A stretch of DNA of 64,000 bases. Origin: Rhizobium etli 8C-3 (lineage in GTDB: Bacteria; Pseudomonadota; Alphaproteobacteria; Rhizobiales; Rhizobiaceae). The notes beneath the pieces were generated by a model that saw only the letters and a program-made list of their open reading frames with translations, was not told the origin of the DNA and did not search any database. The stretch is taken from contig NZ_CP017244.1 of NCBI RefSeq assembly GCF_001908375.1, forward strand, positions 2,189,964 through 2,253,963. Direction: 5' to 3'. Positions within the stretch are counted from its first letter, which is position 1; each line of letters begins with the position of its first letter. Below, in pieces: positions 10,754 to 64,000 of the stretch. The translations under genes and the position numbers were made by a program.

Positions 10754-13700
10754 CTAAGCTGCTCCTGCCGTGTGTCCGCTTAGCAATTGCGCGTTCTTGA
10801 GATCTGGCAATGCCGTACCCTCTGTGAAACTTTCACAGATTTGGGCAAGCTGTTCACGCGCGGCGCCTTCGTTGTCAATCCGCGCAAGGCTCGTTGCTGC
10901 CCTCAGTTCCCAAAAGCGTGCGCCCTGTGCTCGGGCAGTGGCCAGCGCTTCGCCGAAGCGCTCGGCAGCCATCGTTTTGCGTTCGGGATCGATTTGCAGC
11001 ATGGCCTCTCCCTGAAGTCGGAAAACCTCGGCCGCAAACCAGCGCTCGTTGGTACGCTCGATGACCTGCTGTGCTTCCACAAGCAGGGCGAGGGCCGCAT
11101 TCGGATGTCCGGCTTTGATGTCGATCTGCGCTTGAACCGCCGTGAAATAGGGCAACATGTACTTCGCGCCGGTGCGACGCCATTCTTCAATGCCCCTCAA
11201 CAAATCGGATCTGCCGCGATCTGTTTCGCCCTCCTCGGCAATTGCCCAGGCCTGCAGGATCATTGCTCCTGCCTGCCAGAAGCGAAATCCGGCCTCTTCT
11301 GATATTTCCGAGAGTTCACAGGCCCGACTTTTCACGGCCTGCCGATTGCCGAGTATCTGATGGACAACGCCACCGAAAAACAAGGGCAGAGCGAGACTGT
11401 TGCGGTGTCCCAGGCTCCTCGCTTCCCGAACCGCTTCATCATTGGCCGCGATCGCCTGATCGGGCAAACCAAGCGGCAAGAGAGTGCGGGCCAGATAATC
11501 GAGACAGACGACACGGGGGTCAAAGGCATACACGAATGCTTCAGACCGATGCTCCTGCGGGTCATAAAGTGACAGCGCTTCCTTCAAATGGGCGCGAGCA
11601 CGCAAAAATTCGCCGGCTGGAAGCGCGCTGACACCAGCTGCCCGATGGGCGAAGAAAGAAAGGCCGCGATCATTGCTGTGACCTGCCAGCTCCAGCAGCT
11701 TGTCGGCGGCGCGACGTGCCTCGTCAAGCTCGGCCGCATAGAGATGGTAGAGGCACAGGCCGTAAAGGACCGGGAACAGCTGGCGCATCTCATCAAGCTC
11801 TTCGCACAGCTCCTGTGCCCGCAGGTAGGCCGCTCCTGTTTCCGGCGCGGCAAAGCCATGCGCTGCCACTTGCGTGCTGCCGAGCGCGACCTGAATTCCC
11901 AGTTCTCGCCGCAATCGCTCCCGGGAAGGCGGGAGAGCTGCCAATCCGTTCAGGGCGTTGCGGAACCGGACAAGCGCTTCCGATATCGAGGAGCGCAAAA
12001 GCGCCCGCCTTCCGGCCAGTTCGTTATACTCGACGGCCTTGTCCAAAAGAGAGGCCTGGTTGAAATGATGCGCAAGCAACTCAGGCTCAGCTTCCACCTT
12101 TTCAGGAAAGCTTTCCTCCATGATGTGGGCAATGCGCGCGTGCAACTGTTGGCGTCGGCTCAATAAAAGGCTGCCGTAAGCGGCATCTTGAACCAATGCG
12201 TGTTTGAAGGCGTAGCTGACGTCGCCGCCTCCACCACGGCGGAATACCAGGCCTGCAGCCACAAGCTGGTCAGTCGCCCTCTCCAGCTCGGGTTCTGCCA
12301 GTCCGGCGGCAGCAGCCAGCAATTCGTGGCTGAATTCCCGGCCGATTACTGCACCGATCTGGGCAACCTCCCTGACAGAGGCCAGCCGGTCGAGCCTTGC
12401 CATCAAGGAGTCGTGCAGCGTGGCGGGTACTGCCAGAGGAGGCAAGGGGCCGGACAGTTTGTAGTCCTCGCCTGTATCGCTCAGCATGCCTGATTCCAGG
12501 ATGAGCTTGGTCATTTCCTCGATGAAAAGCGGCACGCCCTCGGTTTTTGAGAGGATTTGGTCGAGAACCGGTGATGGAAGGCTCTTTCCTCCTGTCATCG
12601 CCGCGATGATCGAGGCCGCCTGCGCACGGCTCAATCGGTTCAGTGTCAATAAAGTAGCGTGCCGAAGGCCGTTCCACCGAACCACACCTTCCGGGCGGGA
12701 CGTGGCGACCAAAAGGATGGGAAGCTTTTGGATCCGATCGACGATCACATCGAAGAGCTCGGCCGATACCGGATCAAGATAATGCGCATCCTCAAGCAGC
12801 ATGAGGATCGGCTTTGCTCGCGCCAGGGCCACCAGTTGGTCGACCAGGACCTCGAATGTGCGCGTTTTCACCTTCTGCGGCATCAGATCGGGTTTGGGAT
12901 AACGGTCTCCCGTGGGGATCGACAGCAAGGTGGCAATGAGCGGCACTTCCTCCTGCGGATTGTTGGTCGCTGCAAGCACTCCTTCGAGAAAGGCCAGCTG
13001 TCGTTCCGGCGGATCCGTCCGTGAAATGCTGGCAGCCCGCAGCAACTGGTCTATGACTGGAAAAAGTGCACTTTGCGTATGATACGGTGAGCAGAAATAA
13101 CGCAGGTATGTGACGTTCTCCTCCTTCAACCGTTCGCGAAGTTCCTGGAGAATGCGTGACTTTCCGATCCCAGCTTCGCCAAATAGCTCGACGACCTGAC
13201 CTTCCCCCGACGCTGCGAGGTTCCATCGCTCGGTCAACAAGGCCAGGTCGAGATCTCGCCCCGCCAGCGGCGCAGTGCCACCCTCGTGGAGAGCGTCGAA
13301 ACGGCTTTCCGCCCGGCCCTCCCCGATCACTTGGTAGGAATTGGTGGGGGTATCGAAACCGTGCAGTTTCTGCGGGCGAATACGCTTCACTTCGAAGAGC
13401 TTGCCTGTCAGTCGGAACGTGAGTTCAGAAATCAGCACTGTGTTCGGTTCGGCAAGAGCTTGCAGTCTGGCAGCAAGATTTGGCGTCTCGCCGACAACTG
13501 CATTCTCCTGAGCGGCGCCGAAGCCGACGAGGTCGCCGACGACCACCAGTCCGGTCGCAATCCCGACGCGCACCGAGAGTTGCTGGCCGCCCTTGGTCGA
13601 CAAGCCCTTGATGGTCTCTACAACTGCAAGACCTGCCTTGACGGCTCGCTCGGCCTCGTCCTCATGGGTCTGCGGCCAGCCGAAATAACAAAGCACGCCA

Positions 13701-14134
13701 TCGCCCATCAGCTTCGCCACGTAGCCGTCAAAGCGGACGACGTCGCCCGCCACGGCATTTTGGAACTGACGCAACAGCGCGCCCATCTCCTCAGGGTCGA
13801 GCTGGGTGGAAAGGCCGGTAGAACCCACCAGGTCGACGAACATCACTGTCAGCTGGCGTCTTTCCGCCTCCCGGGGACGCGCCGGCGATGGTTGGTGGCG
13901 ACGAGGAGCGGCAGTGAGGTCCGCCTGCTTGCGCAGATGCCGGCCCTCTTGGCCGTCATCAAGCCCAGCAATTGCCTCGAGTATTTTCTTTCTGTGCGCA
14001 AGGGCGGCCACGCCGATCTCTTTGAGGTCGTCGGAGGTCAGCTTTGGCAGCATCTCCGCGTCGATCGCATTGATCTCGAAGGCCGAGGCATACTGCCCGC
14101 ATCCCAGGCTCTCCAGCCAGGAAGATATATTCAT
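10754..14134 (-). CDS. SAM-domain / class III nucleotidyl cyclase / AAA ATPase / TPR signalling protein
   Basis: This 1126-residue multidomain protein has a SAM domain (about 1-58), then a class III adenylate/guanylate cyclase domain (about 92-270) with MFVDLVGST (Asp101) and GYVAKLMGDGVLCYFGW (Asp145) carrying the two metal-binding Asp. An AAA/NB-ARC-like ATPase follows, with Walker A GEAGIGKS at 319-326 and Walker B ILMLLEDAHYLD. The last 500 residues are helical TPR-like repeats. This architecture is common in rhizobia, where dozens of such putative cyclases occur. The second messenger and the signal sensed are unknown. It has no signal peptide or membrane segment and heads a leftward unit with the SnoaL-like gene. 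Confidence 0.88.
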   Translation of the reverse strand: MNISSWLESLGCGQYASAFEINAIDAEMLPKLTSDDLKEIGVAALAHRKKILEAIAGLDDGQEGRHLRKQADLTAAPRRHQPSPARPREAERRQLTVMFVDLVGSTGLSTQLDPEEMGALLRQFQNAVAGDVVRFDGYVAKLMGDGVLCYFGWPQTHEDEAERAVKAGLAVVETIKGLSTKGGQQLSVRVGIATGLVVVGDLVGFGAAQENAVVGETPNLAARLQALAEPNTVLISELTFRLTGKLFEVKRIRPQKLHGFDTPTNSYQVIGEGRAESRFDALHEGGTAPLAGRDLDLALLTERWNLAASGEGQVVELFGEAGIGKSRILQELRERLKEENVTYLRYFCSPYHTQSALFPVIDQLLRAASISRTDPPERQLAFLEGVLAATNNPQEEVPLIATLLSIPTGDRYPKPDLMPQKVKTRTFEVLVDQLVALARAKPILMLLEDAHYLDPVSAELFDVIVDRIQKLPILLVATSRPEGVVRWNGLRHATLLTLNRLSRAQAASIIAAMTGGKSLPSPVLDQILSKTEGVPLFIEEMTKLILESGMLSDTGEDYKLSGPLPPLAVPATLHDSLMARLDRLASVREVAQIGAVIGREFSHELLAAAAGLAEPELERATDQLVAAGLVFRRGGGGDVSYAFKHALVQDAAYGSLLLSRRQQLHARIAHIMEESFPEKVEAEPELLAHHFNQASLLDKAVEYNELAGRRALLRSSISEALVRFRNALNGLAALPPSRERLRRELGIQVALGSTQVAAHGFAAPETGAAYLRAQELCEELDEMRQLFPVLYGLCLYHLYAAELDEARRAADKLLELAGHSNDRGLSFFAHRAAGVSALPAGEFLRARAHLKEALSLYDPQEHRSEAFVYAFDPRVVCLDYLARTLLPLGLPDQAIAANDEAVREARSLGHRNSLALPLFFGGVVHQILGNRQAVKSRACELSEISEEAGFRFWQAGAMILQAWAIAEEGETDRGRSDLLRGIEEWRRTGAKYMLPYFTAVQAQIDIKAGHPNAALALLVEAQQVIERTNERWFAAEVFRLQGEAMLQIDPERKTMAAERFGEALATARAQGARFWELRAATSLARIDNEGAAREQLAQICESFTEGTALPDLKNAQLLSGHTAGAA

Positions 14135-14351
14135 CGGGGTCTCCTCCCAGGCCGACCCTCAAGAAAATACTATAGCGCAGCCATCGGCAAAAAGCACTCG
14201 CCACAGAGTGTATGGCGACAGTATCGGAGGCGGGTTCAACCTCTGGATCGCTGAAGCTGCTGGATGATGCCCCCTTAGCAGCCTGCTCGGCGGCACGGAT
14301 GCAGCAAGCCCCTGGGTACGCCCTCCTTGCGGCAAGCCTCCGCGTGCGCAA

Positions 14352-14470
14352 TGAAAAGCCCGGCGCGGGAGGAGGTGCGCCGGGCTTCGATAGTGACTGG
14401 CAGCTTGGGAGGAGGAGCGCTGCCCGTCGGTCCGAAGCGGCTCGGGAGGAGGGTGAACCGCTTCGGATCA
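14352..14470 (-). ncRNA. Alpha-r14 / NfeR1 / 'cuckoo'-type sRNA with three anti-SD stem-loops
   Basis: On the minus strand three hairpins follow each other. The first has arms TCCGAAGCGG / CCGCTTCGGA (14431-14440 and 14458-14467). The second has GGCAGC / GCTGCC (14399-14404 and 14419-14424). The third has an 11-bp perfect stem (14356-14366 and 14377-14387) followed by TTTT, forming an intrinsic terminator. Every loop carries CCTCCTCCC, complementary to a Shine-Dalgarno sequence. Three such loops and a length near 120 nt match the rhizobial alpha-r14 family (NfeR1 of S. meliloti). Promoter-like TTGAAC (14498-14503) and TACCTT (14475-14480) with a 17-base spacer place the 5' end near 14468-14470. 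It lies in the 667-base gap between the cyclase and APC permease genes; the rest of that gap shows nothing recognisable. Confidence 0.9.
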
Positions 14471-14474
14471 CCAA

Positions 14475-14503
14475 AAGGTAATGCTGCAATGCAGCAAGTT
14501 CAA
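14475..14503 (-). promoter_or_regulatory. Predicted sigma70-type promoter of the anti-SD sRNA
   Basis: On the minus strand TTGAAC (14498-14503) and TACCTT (14475-14480) are separated by 17 bases. Initiation about 6 bases downstream would start the RNA just before its first stem. The call is from spacing and resemblance only. Confidence 0.55.
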
Positions 14504-14801
14504 GCCCGCATGTCGATGTTTCTACCTTCGGCATCAAATAGCAATCCCAGCCCTCCGACGTCGCTCGAAAGGGCGCCCGCCCTCGCCCTGGCGGCCCCCG
14601 AACAGGTTCGTTTTCGTCAGGCCGACGGCCCCATAAGCGGAGTTCGGCATCAGATCGAAAAAGGGGCTTGCAGGCGTGGCGCGTTTCTCGATGTCCCTCC
14701 CGCAAGAGAAGGCTCAACGACTGCTTTTCTTTCTTATTTCCCGCTCTAGTTGCCAAAAGCCGGGCCAATGCAGTCATCGTCGGACATTAGAAGGAGGGAG
14801 C

Positions 14802-16163
14802 ATGAGCGGGAAATCATTGGATAAGCTAGTCGAGCAGCCGGAACTGAAGCGGGTCATGGGATCCGGTCTGCTCCTGCTTTTCATCGTCGGCGATATTCTC
14901 GGGACGGGTATTTATGCGTTGACAGGACAAGTCGCCAAAGAGGTCGGCGGCGTGGTCTGGCTGCCGTTCCTGATTGCTTTCGTCGTCGCGCTGCTCACCG
15001 CCTTGAGCTATCTTGAACTGGTGACGAAATATCCGCGCGCCGCCGGTGCTGCACTCTATACGCACAAGGCATTCGGTATCCACTTCCTCACCTTCCTCGT
15101 TGCATTCGCCGTGATGTCTTCGGGGATAACGTCCGCGTCGACCGCCTCCCGCGCCTTTGCCGCCAACTTCTCGACAGCCTTCGGCTTCGATTTCGGCGGT
15201 TACGGCGTGACCCTCATCGCAGTTGTCTTCATCTCGATCGTCGCGGCGATCAACTTTCGCGGCGTCGGCGAGAGCGTCAGGCTCAACGTCGTGCTGACCG
15301 CGGTCGAACTCACCGGTCTTCTGATCATCATCGGTATCGGCTTTTGGGCGATCGCCGGCGGACAGGGCGACGTCTCCCGGGTTTGGACTTTCCAGCCGAG
15401 CGGCGATCGCGGCGTCATCTGGTCCGTCATCGCGGCAACGACGCTTGCCTTCTTCGCCATGGTCGGTTTCGAGGATTCGGTCAACATGGCCGAGGAATGC
15501 AAGGAACCGAACCGGATATTTCCGAAAGTGCTCCTCGGCGGTCTGGTGATCACCGGCACCATCTATATCCTTGTTGCGATTTCGGCCATCACACTGGTTT
15601 CTGCCGCCGCCCTCGGCGAAGGCGAAACGCCGCTCTTGAAAGTCGTGCAGGCCGGTGCGCCGAATTTCCCCGTCGGCATCTTCGGGATCATCACGATGTT
15701 TGCGGTTGCGAACTCCGCTCTGATCAACATGATGATGGCAAGTCGCTTGATCTACGGGATGAGCCGCGAGCACGTTCTGCCTGACGTGCTTGGAAAGGTC
15801 CACGCGACCAGAAAGACGCCTTTTGTGGCAATCATCTTCACCTCGCTTCTTGCCGTCGCGCTGATCGTCTTTTCAGGCGGCGTTCCGGCGCTTGGCGGCA
15901 CCACGGCCCTCCTGCTTTTATGCGTCTTTGCAGTGGTCAATATCGCCGCACTCGTGCTTCGACGCGACAGCGTCGGACATTCGCATTTCAAAGCACCGAC
16001 GTTTGCGCCTGTGCTGGGTTCGATCACCTGTGCGTTTCTCGCCGGACCCTGGACCGGGCGCGATCCCATCCAGTACCTAATCGCCGCCGTCCTTCTCGGC
16101 CTTGGCGTCGGATTGTGGTTCGTCACAGTCGGCATCATGCGCATCAACAGTAGGACGGCCTGA
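14802..16163 (+). CDS. APC-superfamily amino acid permease
   Basis: This inner-membrane transporter of about 453 residues has about 12 hydrophobic segments. Its first helix is GLLLLFIVGDILGTGIYALTG, with the unwound GTGIY substrate motif of APC carriers, and MVGFEDSVNMAEECKEPNR is the conserved TM6-TM7 loop. The ORF is open 42 codons upstream, but ATG 14802 follows AAGGAGGGAGC and gives a normal N-terminus. The gene stands alone after the sRNA region, 72 bases or more before the GntR regulator. Such carriers move amino acids, amines or related compounds; the substrate is not evident. Confidence 0.88.
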   Translation: MSGKSLDKLVEQPELKRVMGSGLLLLFIVGDILGTGIYALTGQVAKEVGGVVWLPFLIAFVVALLTALSYLELVTKYPRAAGAALYTHKAFGIHFLTFLVAFAVMSSGITSASTASRAFAANFSTAFGFDFGGYGVTLIAVVFISIVAAINFRGVGESVRLNVVLTAVELTGLLIIIGIGFWAIAGGQGDVSRVWTFQPSGDRGVIWSVIAATTLAFFAMVGFEDSVNMAEECKEPNRIFPKVLLGGLVITGTIYILVAISAITLVSAAALGEGETPLLKVVQAGAPNFPVGIFGIITMFAVANSALINMMMASRLIYGMSREHVLPDVLGKVHATRKTPFVAIIFTSLLAVALIVFSGGVPALGGTTALLLLCVFAVVNIAALVLRRDSVGHSHFKAPTFAPVLGSITCAFLAGPWTGRDPIQYLIAAVLLGLGVGLWFVTVGIMRINSRTA

Positions 16164-38476: not shown

Positions 38477-38731
38477 TTAAGGCTTGGCGATGGTTGAGCG
38501 CTCCTGAACGATCCGAGCCCGGTCTTTGTCGCTCTCGCGCATAAGGCGACCGGTGACGCGCAGCATCGCGATGAGGTCGGTTCCGTCGATGGACGCCTTT
38601 GTCATTTGGAGCTGTTCGAACTCGGCCGCCGCCTGCTGCCAGTTTTCGGTCTCGCGCCCAAAGGGGCATCCTTCCTCCTCCCAAATGGCGTATGCGCGCT
38701 GGCTGATCCAATCGTCCTTGTTGTAAACCAT
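38477..38731 (-). CDS. DUF2934-family small protein (second copy)
   Basis: This protein of about 84 residues begins MVYNKDDWISQRAYAIWEEE, then GCPFGRETENWQQAAAEFEQ, the DUF2934 core. The frame opens slightly earlier at 38740 and 38744. Its tail differs from that of the 33953 copy. It lies upstream of the cytochrome c gene on the same strand. Function unknown; together with the other copy it brackets the molybdenum hydroxylase operon. Confidence 0.82.
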   Translation of the reverse strand: MVYNKDDWISQRAYAIWEEEGCPFGRETENWQQAAAEFEQLQMTKASIDGTDLIAMLRVTGRLMRESDKDRARIVQERSTIAKP

Positions 38732-61547: not shown

Positions 61548-62588
61548 ATGGCACGTAAGAATATCCTCTCGGGCCTGATGGACGATTCCAAAAAGTTTAC
61601 CGCCGTAAACAGCGAGCCCGTAAACGACCCCGACAAGCAGCAGATCAATTTCAAGGGAATTGGCGCCCTCGGTGCCGTTACCCGCAGTATCGATGCCCTG
61701 GCCGCACGGGCGGACGCTGCGCGCGAAATCGAAGAAATGCTCGCCCATGGCGAAACCGTGATTGATCTCGACACCGCACTCATTGAAGATTCCTTCGTCA
61801 GCGATCGCCTCGGGCACAATGATGAGCAGTTTCAGGAATTGGTGGAAGCCATTCGCCTTCGAGGTCAGGATTCACCCATTCTTGTCCGCCCGCATCCGCA
61901 AAAGGATGGGAAGTACCAGATCGCCTTCGGCCATCGCCGCGCGCGCGCTGCCAAGGAACTTGGCCGGCCGGTTCGCGCCGTCGTCAAGAAGCTTGCCGAC
62001 CGCGATCATGTCATTGCCCAGGGACAAGAAAACTCCGCACGCGCGGATCTCTCCTTCATCGAACGGACGATGTTTGCCGACAAGCTCGACAAGCTGGGCT
62101 TCGATCGGGAGACGATCATGGCAGCGCTCAATGCCGACAAGACGACGATCTCCAAGATGCTGTCCGTCACCCGGCGCATTCCGGCCGAGATTCTGTCGGC
62201 AATCGGCGCAGCGCGCGCAACTGGCCGCGACCGTTGGCATGACCTTTCGGCGAAATTTGAAGAAGACAATGCTGCCGAGCGGGCGATGCTGTTTATCGAA
62301 ACGCCAGCCTTCGAAGCTGCCGGGCCGGACGCCCGGTTCGACATGCTTGCGGCATTCCTCAGCAAGAAGCCGGCACCAGCCGTCCAGACCACAACGCCGT
62401 CTTCGGCCGTGACCCAGTGGCAGCGCCGGGACGTCAAGGCGAAGATCAAGGATGACGGGAAGCAGTTCACCATCGCGCTGAGGGCAGGGAAGGCGTCAGC
62501 CTTCGGCACCTATATCGCAGACAATCTCGATCGTCTCTATGAGGCGTTCGAAGACAGCAGGACGACAGGAAAGAACGGAGATCAATAG
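61548..62588 (+). CDS. repB: Plasmid partitioning protein RepB (ParB-type)
   Basis: This 346-residue centromere-binding protein has the ParB/Srx domain (FQELVEAIRLRGQDSPILVRPH, FGHRRARAAKELG). A helix-turn-helix KorB-like domain follows (FDRETIMAALNADKTTISKMLSVTRRI). RBS GGGAGGAGAAAGA is strong. It should bind parS and assist RepA in partitioning and repression. Its stop is next to the ctRNA terminator on the opposite strand. Confidence 0.97.
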   Translation: MARKNILSGLMDDSKKFTAVNSEPVNDPDKQQINFKGIGALGAVTRSIDALAARADAAREIEEMLAHGETVIDLDTALIEDSFVSDRLGHNDEQFQELVEAIRLRGQDSPILVRPHPQKDGKYQIAFGHRRARAAKELGRPVRAVVKKLADRDHVIAQGQENSARADLSFIERTMFADKLDKLGFDRETIMAALNADKTTISKMLSVTRRIPAEILSAIGAARATGRDRWHDLSAKFEEDNAAERAMLFIETPAFEAAGPDARFDMLAAFLSKKPAPAVQTTTPSSAVTQWQRRDVKAKIKDDGKQFTIALRAGKASAFGTYIADNLDRLYEAFEDSRTTGKNGDQ

Positions 62589-62589
62589 C

Positions 62590-62642
62590 AAAAGAAAAGG
62601 CCCCCGAACGTTGCCGTAGCGGAAGCCCTCTCTGATCTAGAC
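62590..62642 (-). ncRNA. Counter-transcribed RNA (ctRNA/incA) of the repABC cassette
   Basis: In the repB-repC gap the minus strand reads TTGACT (62672-62677), 17 bases, GATTCT (62649-62654), then a transcript. It ends in the stem GGCTTCCG / CGGGGGCC followed by TTTTCTTTT (62598-62590). The layout equals the small antisense RNA that limits repC expression and sets copy number and incompatibility in repABC plasmids. Length about 53 nt is close to the 55-59 nt of known ctRNAs. Confidence 0.88.
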
Positions 62643-62648
62643 ACCCAG

Positions 62649-62677
62649 AGAATCACATTTCCGCACAATATAGTCAA
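62649..62677 (-). promoter_or_regulatory. Promoter of the ctRNA
   Basis: TTGACT and GATTCT on the minus strand, with a 17-base spacer, drive the antisense RNA in the repB-repC gap. The assignment follows from the conserved position in repABC systems. Confidence 0.7.
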
Positions 62678-62737
62678 GAGTCTCCGGCACCTATTTTCGG
62701 TGAGCTGATATCTTTTGCCTTGAAGAAGGCGAAGAAA

Positions 62738-64000
62738 ATGGAAAGCGGAAGTGTGACGACGCCCTTTGGGCGGCGGCCGATGACACTTGGCATGCTCGCA
62801 AGTCAGGTCACCAGCCACAAAATTGAGCCAGGCGCCTCAATCGACAAATGGAAAATCTATCGTGCGCTTTGTGAAGCCAAGCCTCTGCTCGACATATCCG
62901 ACAGAGCGCTCACGGTATTGAACGCGCTTTTGAGCTTCTACCCGAAAGCCGAGCTTGCAGCAGACGACAGTCTTGTCGTCTTTCCCTCCAATACGCAGCT
63001 ATCGCTTCGCTGCCATGGCATGGCCGAGCAAACGATAAGGCGGCATATGGCCGTCCTCGTGGCCGCCGGTCTCGTGATCCGCAAGGACAGCCCCAACGGC
63101 AAGCGCTACGCTCGCAAGAGCTGCAATGGCGAGATCCACGACGCTTTTGGATTCTCACTCGCGCCTCTGCTTGCGCGCGCCTGCGAAATCGAACGCATGG
63201 CCGCGAAAGTCTCTGCCGACCGTCTCTACATCCAAACGCTCAAGGAACGTCTCACGCTCACCCGCCGCGACATCTCAAAGCTTGTCCAGGCAGCGATCAG
63301 TGAAGAGCTTCCCGGAGACTGGCAAGCGGTGAACGGACGGTTTCACGATATCCTGAACCAATTGCCGCGCAAAGCCGGCGCCCATGCGGTTGCCTCCACA
63401 TTGGATCTCCTCGACGCATTGCGCGATGAAATCGTCAAGCGACTGGAAACACTGATTAAAACGGACGATCTGAGCGCCAATGACTCACAAAATGAGCGGC
63501 ACATACAGATAACAGAATCCGAATCTAATCTTGAATCTGAAGCCGCGGTTAAGATTCCGACCCCTGAGTTGACTGCAGTAAACTCGGCAATGATTGAGGC
63601 AGCAAACGAAGGACACGGTGAACTCCCTCGACTTCCGGCAGGAACCAACACCACATCCACACTATTTCCACTCTCCCTCGTTCTGCAGGCATGCCCGGAA
63701 GCGCGCAGCTACGGACCTGATGGAACTGTCAGAACATGGCAGGACCTCATTGCAGCAGGCGCTATCGTCAGTTCAATGCTTCATATCAGTCCCTCCGCAT
63801 ACAGGGACGCCTGCAGGGTCATGGGTCCGCAAGCGGCCTCAGCCGTGCTTGCCTGCATTTTTGAACGGTCGGGGACGATCAATTCAGCCGGCGGTTATTT
63901 GCGCGACCTCACCCGACGTGCCCAACGCGGAGAGTTTGCAATCGGATCAATGCTAAGAGCACTCGCAAGGACACAGGAACATCATGACGCCCCTCACTGA
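62738..64000 (+). CDS. repC: Replication initiator protein RepC
   Basis: This protein of about 420 residues has the RepC start MESGSVTTPFGRRPMTLGMLASQ (VTTPFGRRPMTL is diagnostic). A winged-helix region FPSNTQLSLRCHGMAEQTIRRHMA and a C-terminal domain with RTWQDLIAAGAIVSSMLHIS follow. A TTG at 62720 would add six residues; ATG 62738 is the conventional start. The stop codon ends exactly at the window edge. RepC is the essential initiator, and the origin is thought to lie within its own coding sequence. Expression is limited by the ctRNA upstream. Confidence 0.95.
   Translation: MESGSVTTPFGRRPMTLGMLASQVTSHKIEPGASIDKWKIYRALCEAKPLLDISDRALTVLNALLSFYPKAELAADDSLVVFPSNTQLSLRCHGMAEQTIRRHMAVLVAAGLVIRKDSPNGKRYARKSCNGEIHDAFGFSLAPLLARACEIERMAAKVSADRLYIQTLKERLTLTRRDISKLVQAAISEELPGDWQAVNGRFHDILNQLPRKAGAHAVASTLDLLDALRDEIVKRLETLIKTDDLSANDSQNERHIQITESESNLESEAAVKIPTPELTAVNSAMIEAANEGHGELPRLPAGTNTTSTLFPLSLVLQACPEARSYGPDGTVRTWQDLIAAGAIVSSMLHISPSAYRDACRVMGPQAASAVLACIFERSGTINSAGGYLRDLTRRAQRGEFAIGSMLRALARTQEHHDAPH
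63460..63600. other. AT-richer segment inside repC, probable origin region
   Basis: This part of repC is poorer in GC than its surroundings (from AAACGGACGATC to the AAGATTCC region) and encodes a variable Glu/Ser-rich linker. In repABC plasmids the replication origin lies inside repC in an AT-rich stretch. The extent given here is approximate. Confidence 0.4.

What the first reader, a model, noticed from the sequence alone, without database searches (positions are those of the whole stretch)
14352..14470. Plasmid-borne anti-Shine-Dalgarno sRNA with three CCTCCTCCC loops
The minus strand carries three successive stem-loops, each presenting CCTCCTCCC, and ends in a terminator. This matches the alpha-r14/NfeR1 ('cuckoo') sRNA family of Alphaproteobacteria, known to act on many ABC transporter mRNAs. 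This replicon is rich in ABC operons with GGAGG-type ribosome-binding sites, so the plasmid may carry both regulator and targets. The gene lies in a gap that would normally be called empty.
Basis: partly seen in the sequence, partly recalled or inferred. Interest (0 to 1): 0.75.

Follow-up and report, generated by a model that had tools for sequence, protein, structure and literature searches.

The report
Plasmid copy of ribosome-site-blocking small RNA
This is a small regulatory RNA gene of a known rhizobial family that blocks ribosome-binding sites; it is one of about ten copies in this genome, and its one unusual feature is a control region laid out differently from that of the well-studied chromosomal copies.

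Summary
The minus strand at 14471-14351 folds into three hairpins with CCUCCUCCC in each loop and matches Rfam ar14 over its full length (102.5 bits, cut-off 58.8). It is a plasmid member of the alpha-r14/cuckoo family; plasmid-borne members have been in print since 2010-2011, so the kind is known. The own genome holds 10 copies over the cut-off. In nine few-contig genomes the 54 copies over the cut-off split cleanly: three fixed classes on chromosomes, two accessory classes elsewhere. That the plasmid carries its own ABC-transporter targets is not supported: ABC genes of the window pair no better than others. What I did not find described is the promoter. Chromosomal classes A and B carry an LsrB-type box about 55 bases upstream, as do most four-hairpin plasmid copies at the equivalent place; the window type lacks it and has a 15-base palindrome between its proposed -35 and -10 elements, as do Rhizobium and Sinorhizobium relatives. 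This hints at different, perhaps opposite, control. Nothing here shows transcription, and of five such copies in those nine genomes only the window's keeps all three loops intact.

The parts
14351..14471 (-). ar14 (alpha-r14/cuckoo) sRNA gene, three hairpins; RNA 5' end expected near 14471
   Evidence: Rfam RF02344 102.5 bits, full model; fold z = -8.26
14444..14452 (-). anti-Shine-Dalgarno motif CCTCCTCCC, loop 1
14407..14415 (-). anti-Shine-Dalgarno motif CCTCCTCCC, loop 2
14367..14375 (-). anti-Shine-Dalgarno motif CCTCCTCCC, loop 3 (last hairpin, followed by TTTTC)
14499..14504 (-). proposed -35 element CTTGAA
   Evidence: present at this place in all 14 class-E copies that were found by other means (5 by Rfam, 9 by BLAST) and in 2 of 3 Sinorhizobium candidates; 15 more were found by a pattern that required it. 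Promoter role is inference
14482..14496 (-). 15-base palindrome TGCTGCA-T-TGCAGCA between the proposed -35 and -10; proposed operator
   Evidence: perfect here; with up to 1 mismatch at 4 places in 7.3 Mb (control pattern 2), 3 of them upstream of ar14 copies, the fourth inside an apparent coding sequence
14475..14480 (-). proposed -10 element TACCTT (weak)
   Evidence: sequence and spacing against CTTAGAC-N17-CTATAT of PMC10746234; inference
10754..14134 (-). neighbour downstream on the same strand: SAM domain + adenylate/guanylate cyclase + AAA ATPase protein; its ribosome site GGGAGGAG is the second-best 9-mer pairing of the 49 genes
   Evidence: Pfam; pairing; GGGAGGGG instead in 4 of 5 relatives
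14802..16163 (+). divergent neighbour: amino acid permease
   Evidence: Pfam AA_permease_2

Best explanation
The locus is a plasmid-borne alpha-r14 (ar14/cuckoo) small RNA of the sub-class here called E. Transcribed leftwards from about 14471, it would fold into three hairpins that hold CCUCCUCCC unpaired and pair with GGAGG-type ribosome sites of many mRNAs, stopping translation, as reported for NfeR1 in S. meliloti. Shown: sequence, predicted structure, family, replicon, sub-class, promoter anatomy. Inferred: transcription, target repression, and control through the palindrome in the promoter spacer rather than through the LsrB box of the NfeR1-type copies.
For: Rfam match; fold; across 78 copies 178 of 183 CUCCUCCC motifs lie in hairpin loops of the predicted fold, against 147 of 918 when the flanks are shuffled; the RNA-body tree puts all 25 class-E rows and one S. 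fredii row on one branch with SH-aLRT 100. LsrB consensus GCAT-N3-TG-N3-T (quoted in PMC8844928): 18 of 18 chromosomal A/B copies at -55/-56, 16 of 22 four-hairpin-class copies at -91 to -97, 0 of 9 class C, 0 of 29 class E (window included), 0 of 3 Sinorhizobium candidates; control stretches 23 of 1026. The ORF directly upstream of ntrC in the own genome, taken as ntrB by position, has GGGAGG before its start (-12.0 kcal/mol with the 9-mer).
Against: No transcript evidence of any kind. PMC7143759 says that of six S. meliloti copies only one was reliably detected by Northern in the conditions tested. The -10 is weak and the sigma-70 scan found no promoter. Loops are not kept uniformly in class E: 25 class-E rows hold 40 CUCCUCCC motifs instead of 75, and of the 5 class-E copies in the nine genomes only the window's has all three.
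Confidence: 0.9

Rival explanations
1. The copy is a silent or decaying duplicate: family sequence without a working promoter, kept for a time on a large plasmid.
For: Weak -10, no sigma-70 scan hit; degraded loops in most class-E copies seen; only one of six S. meliloti copies reliably detected by Northern (PMC7143759).
Against: In this lineage all three loops are perfect, and CTTGAA, palindrome, stems and loops also align in L018-L021, where the DNA further upstream no longer aligns. Another plasmid-borne member, SmelA075 on pSymA, was detected and strongly induced by heat (PMC2873474); it is of another promoter type.
Confidence: 0.15
2. The spacer palindrome is not an operator but a small upstream terminator or part of a longer transcript.
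For: The terminator scan lists it as stem 6, loop 3 followed by TTACCTTTTG.
Against: A GCTGCANTGC core lies at a fixed distance upstream of most class A, B and four-hairpin copies, in the region where PMC10746234 maps regulator binding upstream of the NfeR1 start; in many relatives the palindrome is followed by TACCTCGTG with no T run.
Confidence: 0.2
3. The sRNA is a plasmid self-regulator that targets repB of its own replicon.
For: repB has the strongest 9-mer pairing of the 49 window genes (GGGAGGAG, -16.6 kcal/mol); two other repB starts, in G023 and G026, pair almost as well (-15.8).
Against: GGGAGGAG stands before 1 of 25 repB starts printed (19 of them plausible starts), that one being the window's own, so it is no shared feature of repABC plasmids.
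Confidence: 0.05

Closest known systems
NfeR1 (SmelC397, S. meliloti chromosome; founding alpha-r14 member)
   Same: Three hairpins, three CCUCCUCCC loops, about 123 nt, same family (PMC10746234)
   Different: NfeR1 has an LsrB motif at -72 to -60 and an NtrC site further up; the window copy lacks the LsrB consensus and has a palindrome inside the core promoter instead. NfeR1 itself was not put on the tree; class A is taken as its type from the promoter
SmelA075 (S. meliloti pSymA)
   Same: Plasmid-borne, three identical loops, ar14 match of 89.9 bits; detected, heat-induced, 5' end confirmed by RACE (PMC2873474 passages)
   Different: Carries GCAATGCTGCGATGC upstream of the core promoter rather than a palindrome inside it; its place on the tree is unsure (long branch)
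SmelA099 / four-hairpin members
   Same: Same loops; described in 2011 (PMC3927594); 16 of 22 copies of this class in nine genomes show the exact extra 5' motif
   Different: The window copy has three hairpins
AbcR1/AbcR2
   Same: aSD pairing with transporter mRNAs, a shared target with NfeR1 (PMC8844928 passages)
   Different: Hfq-binding, another family; no such Rfam match at the locus at the gathering threshold

Membership tests
ar14 / alpha-r14 / cuckoo (RF02344) | Covariance-model score over the gathering cut-off | tested here: met
   102.5 against 58.8 bits, positions 1-123
ar14 / alpha-r14 / cuckoo (RF02344) | Three hairpins with CCUCCUCCC unpaired in each loop | tested here: met
   (predicted fold)
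ar14 / alpha-r14 / cuckoo (RF02344) | Stems variable, loops constant among relatives | tested here: met
   many different stem arms per class, 178 of 183 motifs in loops; but within class E many relatives have lost one or two motifs
ar14 / alpha-r14 / cuckoo (RF02344) | Sigma-70 promoter CTTAGAC-N17-CTATAT | tested here: inconclusive
   CTTGAAC-N17-TACCTT: -35 close, -10 weak; generic scan negative. CTTGAA also equals the -35 of the RpoH1 consensus quoted in PMC8844928
ar14 / alpha-r14 / cuckoo (RF02344) | Expressed as an Hfq-independent RNA of about 120 nt | not testable with these tools
   no expression data
NfeR1 orthologue proper | LsrB-type box upstream of the core promoter | tested here: not met
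   absent in the window copy and in all 29 class-E copies checked, against 18 of 18 A/B copies with it
NfeR1 orthologue proper | Represses ABC-transporter or ntrB mRNAs | not testable with these tools
   only pairing energies:

The most novel reading that the evidence does not exclude
Rhizobial plasmids carry a distinct class of anti-Shine-Dalgarno sRNA whose promoter logic is reversed: a palindrome sharing the core of the activator box found on the chromosomal copies sits between -35 and -10, so that the regulator which switches the chromosomal copies on, or a relative of it, would switch the plasmid copy off. A cell would then use one loop sequence but deploy chromosomal and plasmid copies in opposite conditions.
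Probability: 0.25. Interest if true: 0.55.

Novelty: new member of a known kind. Interest (0 to 1): 0.33.

Why it matters
The sRNA itself is a further member of a described family. The useful part is the inventory: in nine genomes three fixed chromosomal classes, and two accessory plasmid classes with their own promoter arrangements. If loops, and so probably targets, are shared while promoters differ, the question why rhizobia keep up to ten near-redundant anti-SD RNAs becomes testable with promoter fusions.

Tried and rejected
ABC-target enrichment in the window: not found. repB as a conserved plasmid target: strongest 9-mer pairing in the window, but GGGAGGAG at 1 of 25 repB starts printed. 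Cyclase gene 10754-14134 as a conserved target: pairing stays fairly strong in 5 relatives (-12.7 to -15.4 kcal/mol), but that is simply a strong ribosome site and I give it no weight. Cold-shock gene as a fixed partner: upstream in 2 plasmids (L020, L021), not found by a motif search within 1.5 kb of the 13 own-genome matches, nor in L014-L019 or L022. Phage origin: no match in 50,697 phage records. Palindrome sites elsewhere in the genome: with up to 1 mismatch one further place, inside a coding sequence that I read as glucose-6-phosphate isomerase from recall, not from a call. The 2015 cuckoo paper (PMC4615179) is not held and the 2017 NfeR1 paper was not looked up, so I cannot say whether promoter classes were described there; searches listed no paper that I could see describing them, but of the papers only passages, one section each of PMC10746234 and PMC3927594, or listings were read.

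Rows dropped or imperfect: 11 matches below the Rfam cut-off (3 own, 4, 4), several of them on chromosomes, are left out of all class counts. Class labels were typed by hand for E, C and the four-hairpin class; of the 22 four-hairpin-class copies 16 show the exact extra motif, 4 a variant (L007, L040, L062, L065), and L010 and L070 belong there by the tree only. L064 was labelled A by a rule but groups with B in the tree; I count it as B. One search's rule put L005 in E because of a chance CTTGAA; it has four hairpins and is counted so here. Of the 22 loci, 6 come from unrelated organisms and are taken as chance; of the 16 Rhizobium loci, L087 was read but is not in the count of 29. Many class-E rows are close relatives, so their counts are not independent events. 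One search was given 26 of 30 loci and stopped with an error on the last; in 6 of the 25 printed rows the start chosen is internal and invalid. One search's alignment has two rows cut at wrong places and supports no statement. Gene starts were chosen by a rule that favours strong ribosome sites, the same for all genes, and the gene list was made by a rough method with three genes added and two removed by hand. The four R. gallicum-type records H1-H4 have 1-2 annotated features in all, so 'none' under their match means nothing.

Full report
What is there. The minus strand of 14351-14471 contains CCTCCTCCC three times, and one further copy lies elsewhere in the window; whole-window shuffles average 0.62, and 1 of 100 reached 4. 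The 121 nt fold into three hairpins with the motif in each loop, far better than shuffles (z -8.26). Rfam's ar14 model matches from first to last position at 102.5 bits. This settles the family. The two other Rfam matches of the window, ctRNA_p42d and the S-element, with ParA-, RepB- and RepC-type proteins at 60.3-64.0 kb, show that the window lies on a repABC replicon, 2.25 Mb long. The closest named records are megaplasmids of Rhizobium gallicum and relatives; that the window comes from that group is inference. Something similar is found in 250 and 254 of 72,556 plasmid records, counts that include other sub-classes.

Copies in this and related genomes. The own genome has 13 matches, 10 over the cut-off, on all four contigs. 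In 61 genomes searched with stricter filters, all 37 of its genus (own included) have 3 to 12 matches, the own genome most (12); of the 24 genomes of other genera, 9 have 1 to 3 matches and 15 none; 38 of 61 genomes have a match over the cut-off. For the own genome and eight others with 3-7 contigs I read all 54 copies over the cut-off. I took one contig per genome as chromosome by the size of match coordinates; these nine are also contigs on which one search found no RepB relative, whereas it found them on other contigs of every one of the nine genomes. Over the cut-off each chromosome holds exactly three copies, one each of classes A, B and C (27 in all); the 27 other copies are of the four-hairpin class (22) or window-type class E (5). 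The tree of RNA bodies, 78 rows and 125 columns, agrees broadly: E plus one S. fredii row on one branch (SH-aLRT 100), C one branch (84), the four-hairpin class one branch but weakly (58), A and B apart once L064 is moved to B. With so few columns 35 of 71 inner branches are unresolved.

Promoters. PMC10746234 (section 5 and passages) reports that LsrB activates and NtrC represses NfeR1 and places the LsrB motif at -72 to -60; PMC8844928 (passages) quotes GCAT-N3-TG-N3-T as the LsrB consensus of Brucella and Agrobacterium. That consensus occurs at -55/-56 of the Rfam start in 18 of 18 class A and B copies, and at -91 to -97 in 16 of 22 four-hairpin-class copies, about the same place once the extra 5' hairpin of some 38 nt is counted. 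It is absent in 9 of 9 class C, in 29 of 29 class E and in 3 of 3 Sinorhizobium candidates; control stretches have it in 23 of 1026. The stretch scanned was -130 to +5 and about -93 to +7 for the 29. Positions are relative to the Rfam match, not to mapped starts, so the likeness of -56 to the published site is approximate.

Class E has instead CTTGAA, then a palindrome, then a weak -10. In the window the palindrome is perfect, TGCTGCA-T-TGCAGCA (14482-14496). In relatives it reads TGCTGCG-TTGCAGCA, TGCCGCA-TTGCGGCA and others; both arms change together in some (T..A to C..G) and not in others (for example L081, L047). Of 16 distinct 18-base spacers, 10 show at least 6 of 8 complementary positions, reached by about 2.4% of shuffles; the spacers are related, so this is no probability. 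In the own genome the 15-mer with up to one mismatch occurs at 4 places, against 2 for the reversed control pattern: the window, upstream of two four-hairpin copies, and one apparent coding sequence. pSymB copies of S. meliloti and S. medicae (L098, L099) have the same layout, CTTGAA-GATGCTGCACTGCAGCAT-TATTAT in S. meliloti, although their RNA bodies group with class A in the tree: shared ancestry blurred by a short alignment, promoter exchange, or convergence.

Loops in class E. The window, its R. gallicum-type relatives and a few others keep all three loops, but most class-E copies do not: 25 class-E rows hold 40 CUCCUCCC motifs, not 75, and of the 5 class-E copies in the nine genomes the other four (L044, L047, L068, L072) have one each. 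This speaks against strong selection on three loops across the class.

How it most likely works. By analogy with NfeR1, whose three motifs act redundantly and which also silences ntrB (PMC10746234 passages), the RNA blocks ribosome sites. Which mRNAs it hits cannot be read from the loops alone: any strong GGAGG site will pair. Of 49 window genes the best 9-mer pairings are repB, the adjacent cyclase gene and a ThuA-type gene; ABC genes do not stand out. A regulator bound to a palindrome between -35 and -10 would most simply hinder RNA polymerase; that the regulator is LsrB or a relative is a guess from the shared GCTGCANTGC core, and class E lacks the GCAT half of the LsrB consensus. The -35 CTTGAA also equals that of the RpoH1 consensus quoted in PMC8844928, so a heat-shock sigma factor is possible; PMC3616915 (passages) notes that sigma-70 and RpoH predictions overlap.

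What was known. PMC2873474 (passages) describes pSymA-borne SmelA075 with three stem-loops and identical loop motifs, heat-induced, 5' end confirmed by RACE; PMC3927594 (section 21 and passages) describes three- and four-hairpin members, copies on each replicon, and proposes one family. The window's gene is thus an ordinary member. The class inventory and the class-E promoter I did not find in what I saw of the papers, but the 2015 cuckoo paper and the 2017 NfeR1 paper were not read.

Noticed in passing
L003, L005, L006, L009 and others, about 20 bases before the Rfam match: A fourth 5' hairpin with the same loop lies outside the Rfam ar14 match; 16 of 22 copies of this class have the exact CTCCTCCC there. 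Known in principle as SmelA099 type.
   Followed up: partly
L020 and L021 (pT136c, pSF45436d): Class-E copies lie about 80-90 bases downstream of a cold-shock protein gene on the same strand, near repC.
   Followed up: partly
L022, L044, L047, L068, L072, L078-L081, L083, L086, L087, L089-L091, L093, L095, L096: In these class-E copies the loop 1 motif is degraded (such as CCCCTCCTAG), and often loop 3 too, while CTTGAA, stems and mostly the palindrome are kept.
   Followed up: no
window 14510-14800: Between sRNA and amino acid permease the window is about 140-160 bases shorter than three R. gallicum-type relatives (H1-H3).
   Followed up: no
window 10754-14134 (-): Protein with SAM, adenylate/guanylate cyclase and AAA ATPase domains next to the sRNA.
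   Followed up: no
window 38674-38682 (+): One further CCTCCTCCC outside any ar14 match.
   Followed up: no
window 62588-62740: ctRNA_p42d and S-element of the repABC system between repB and repC.
   Followed up: no
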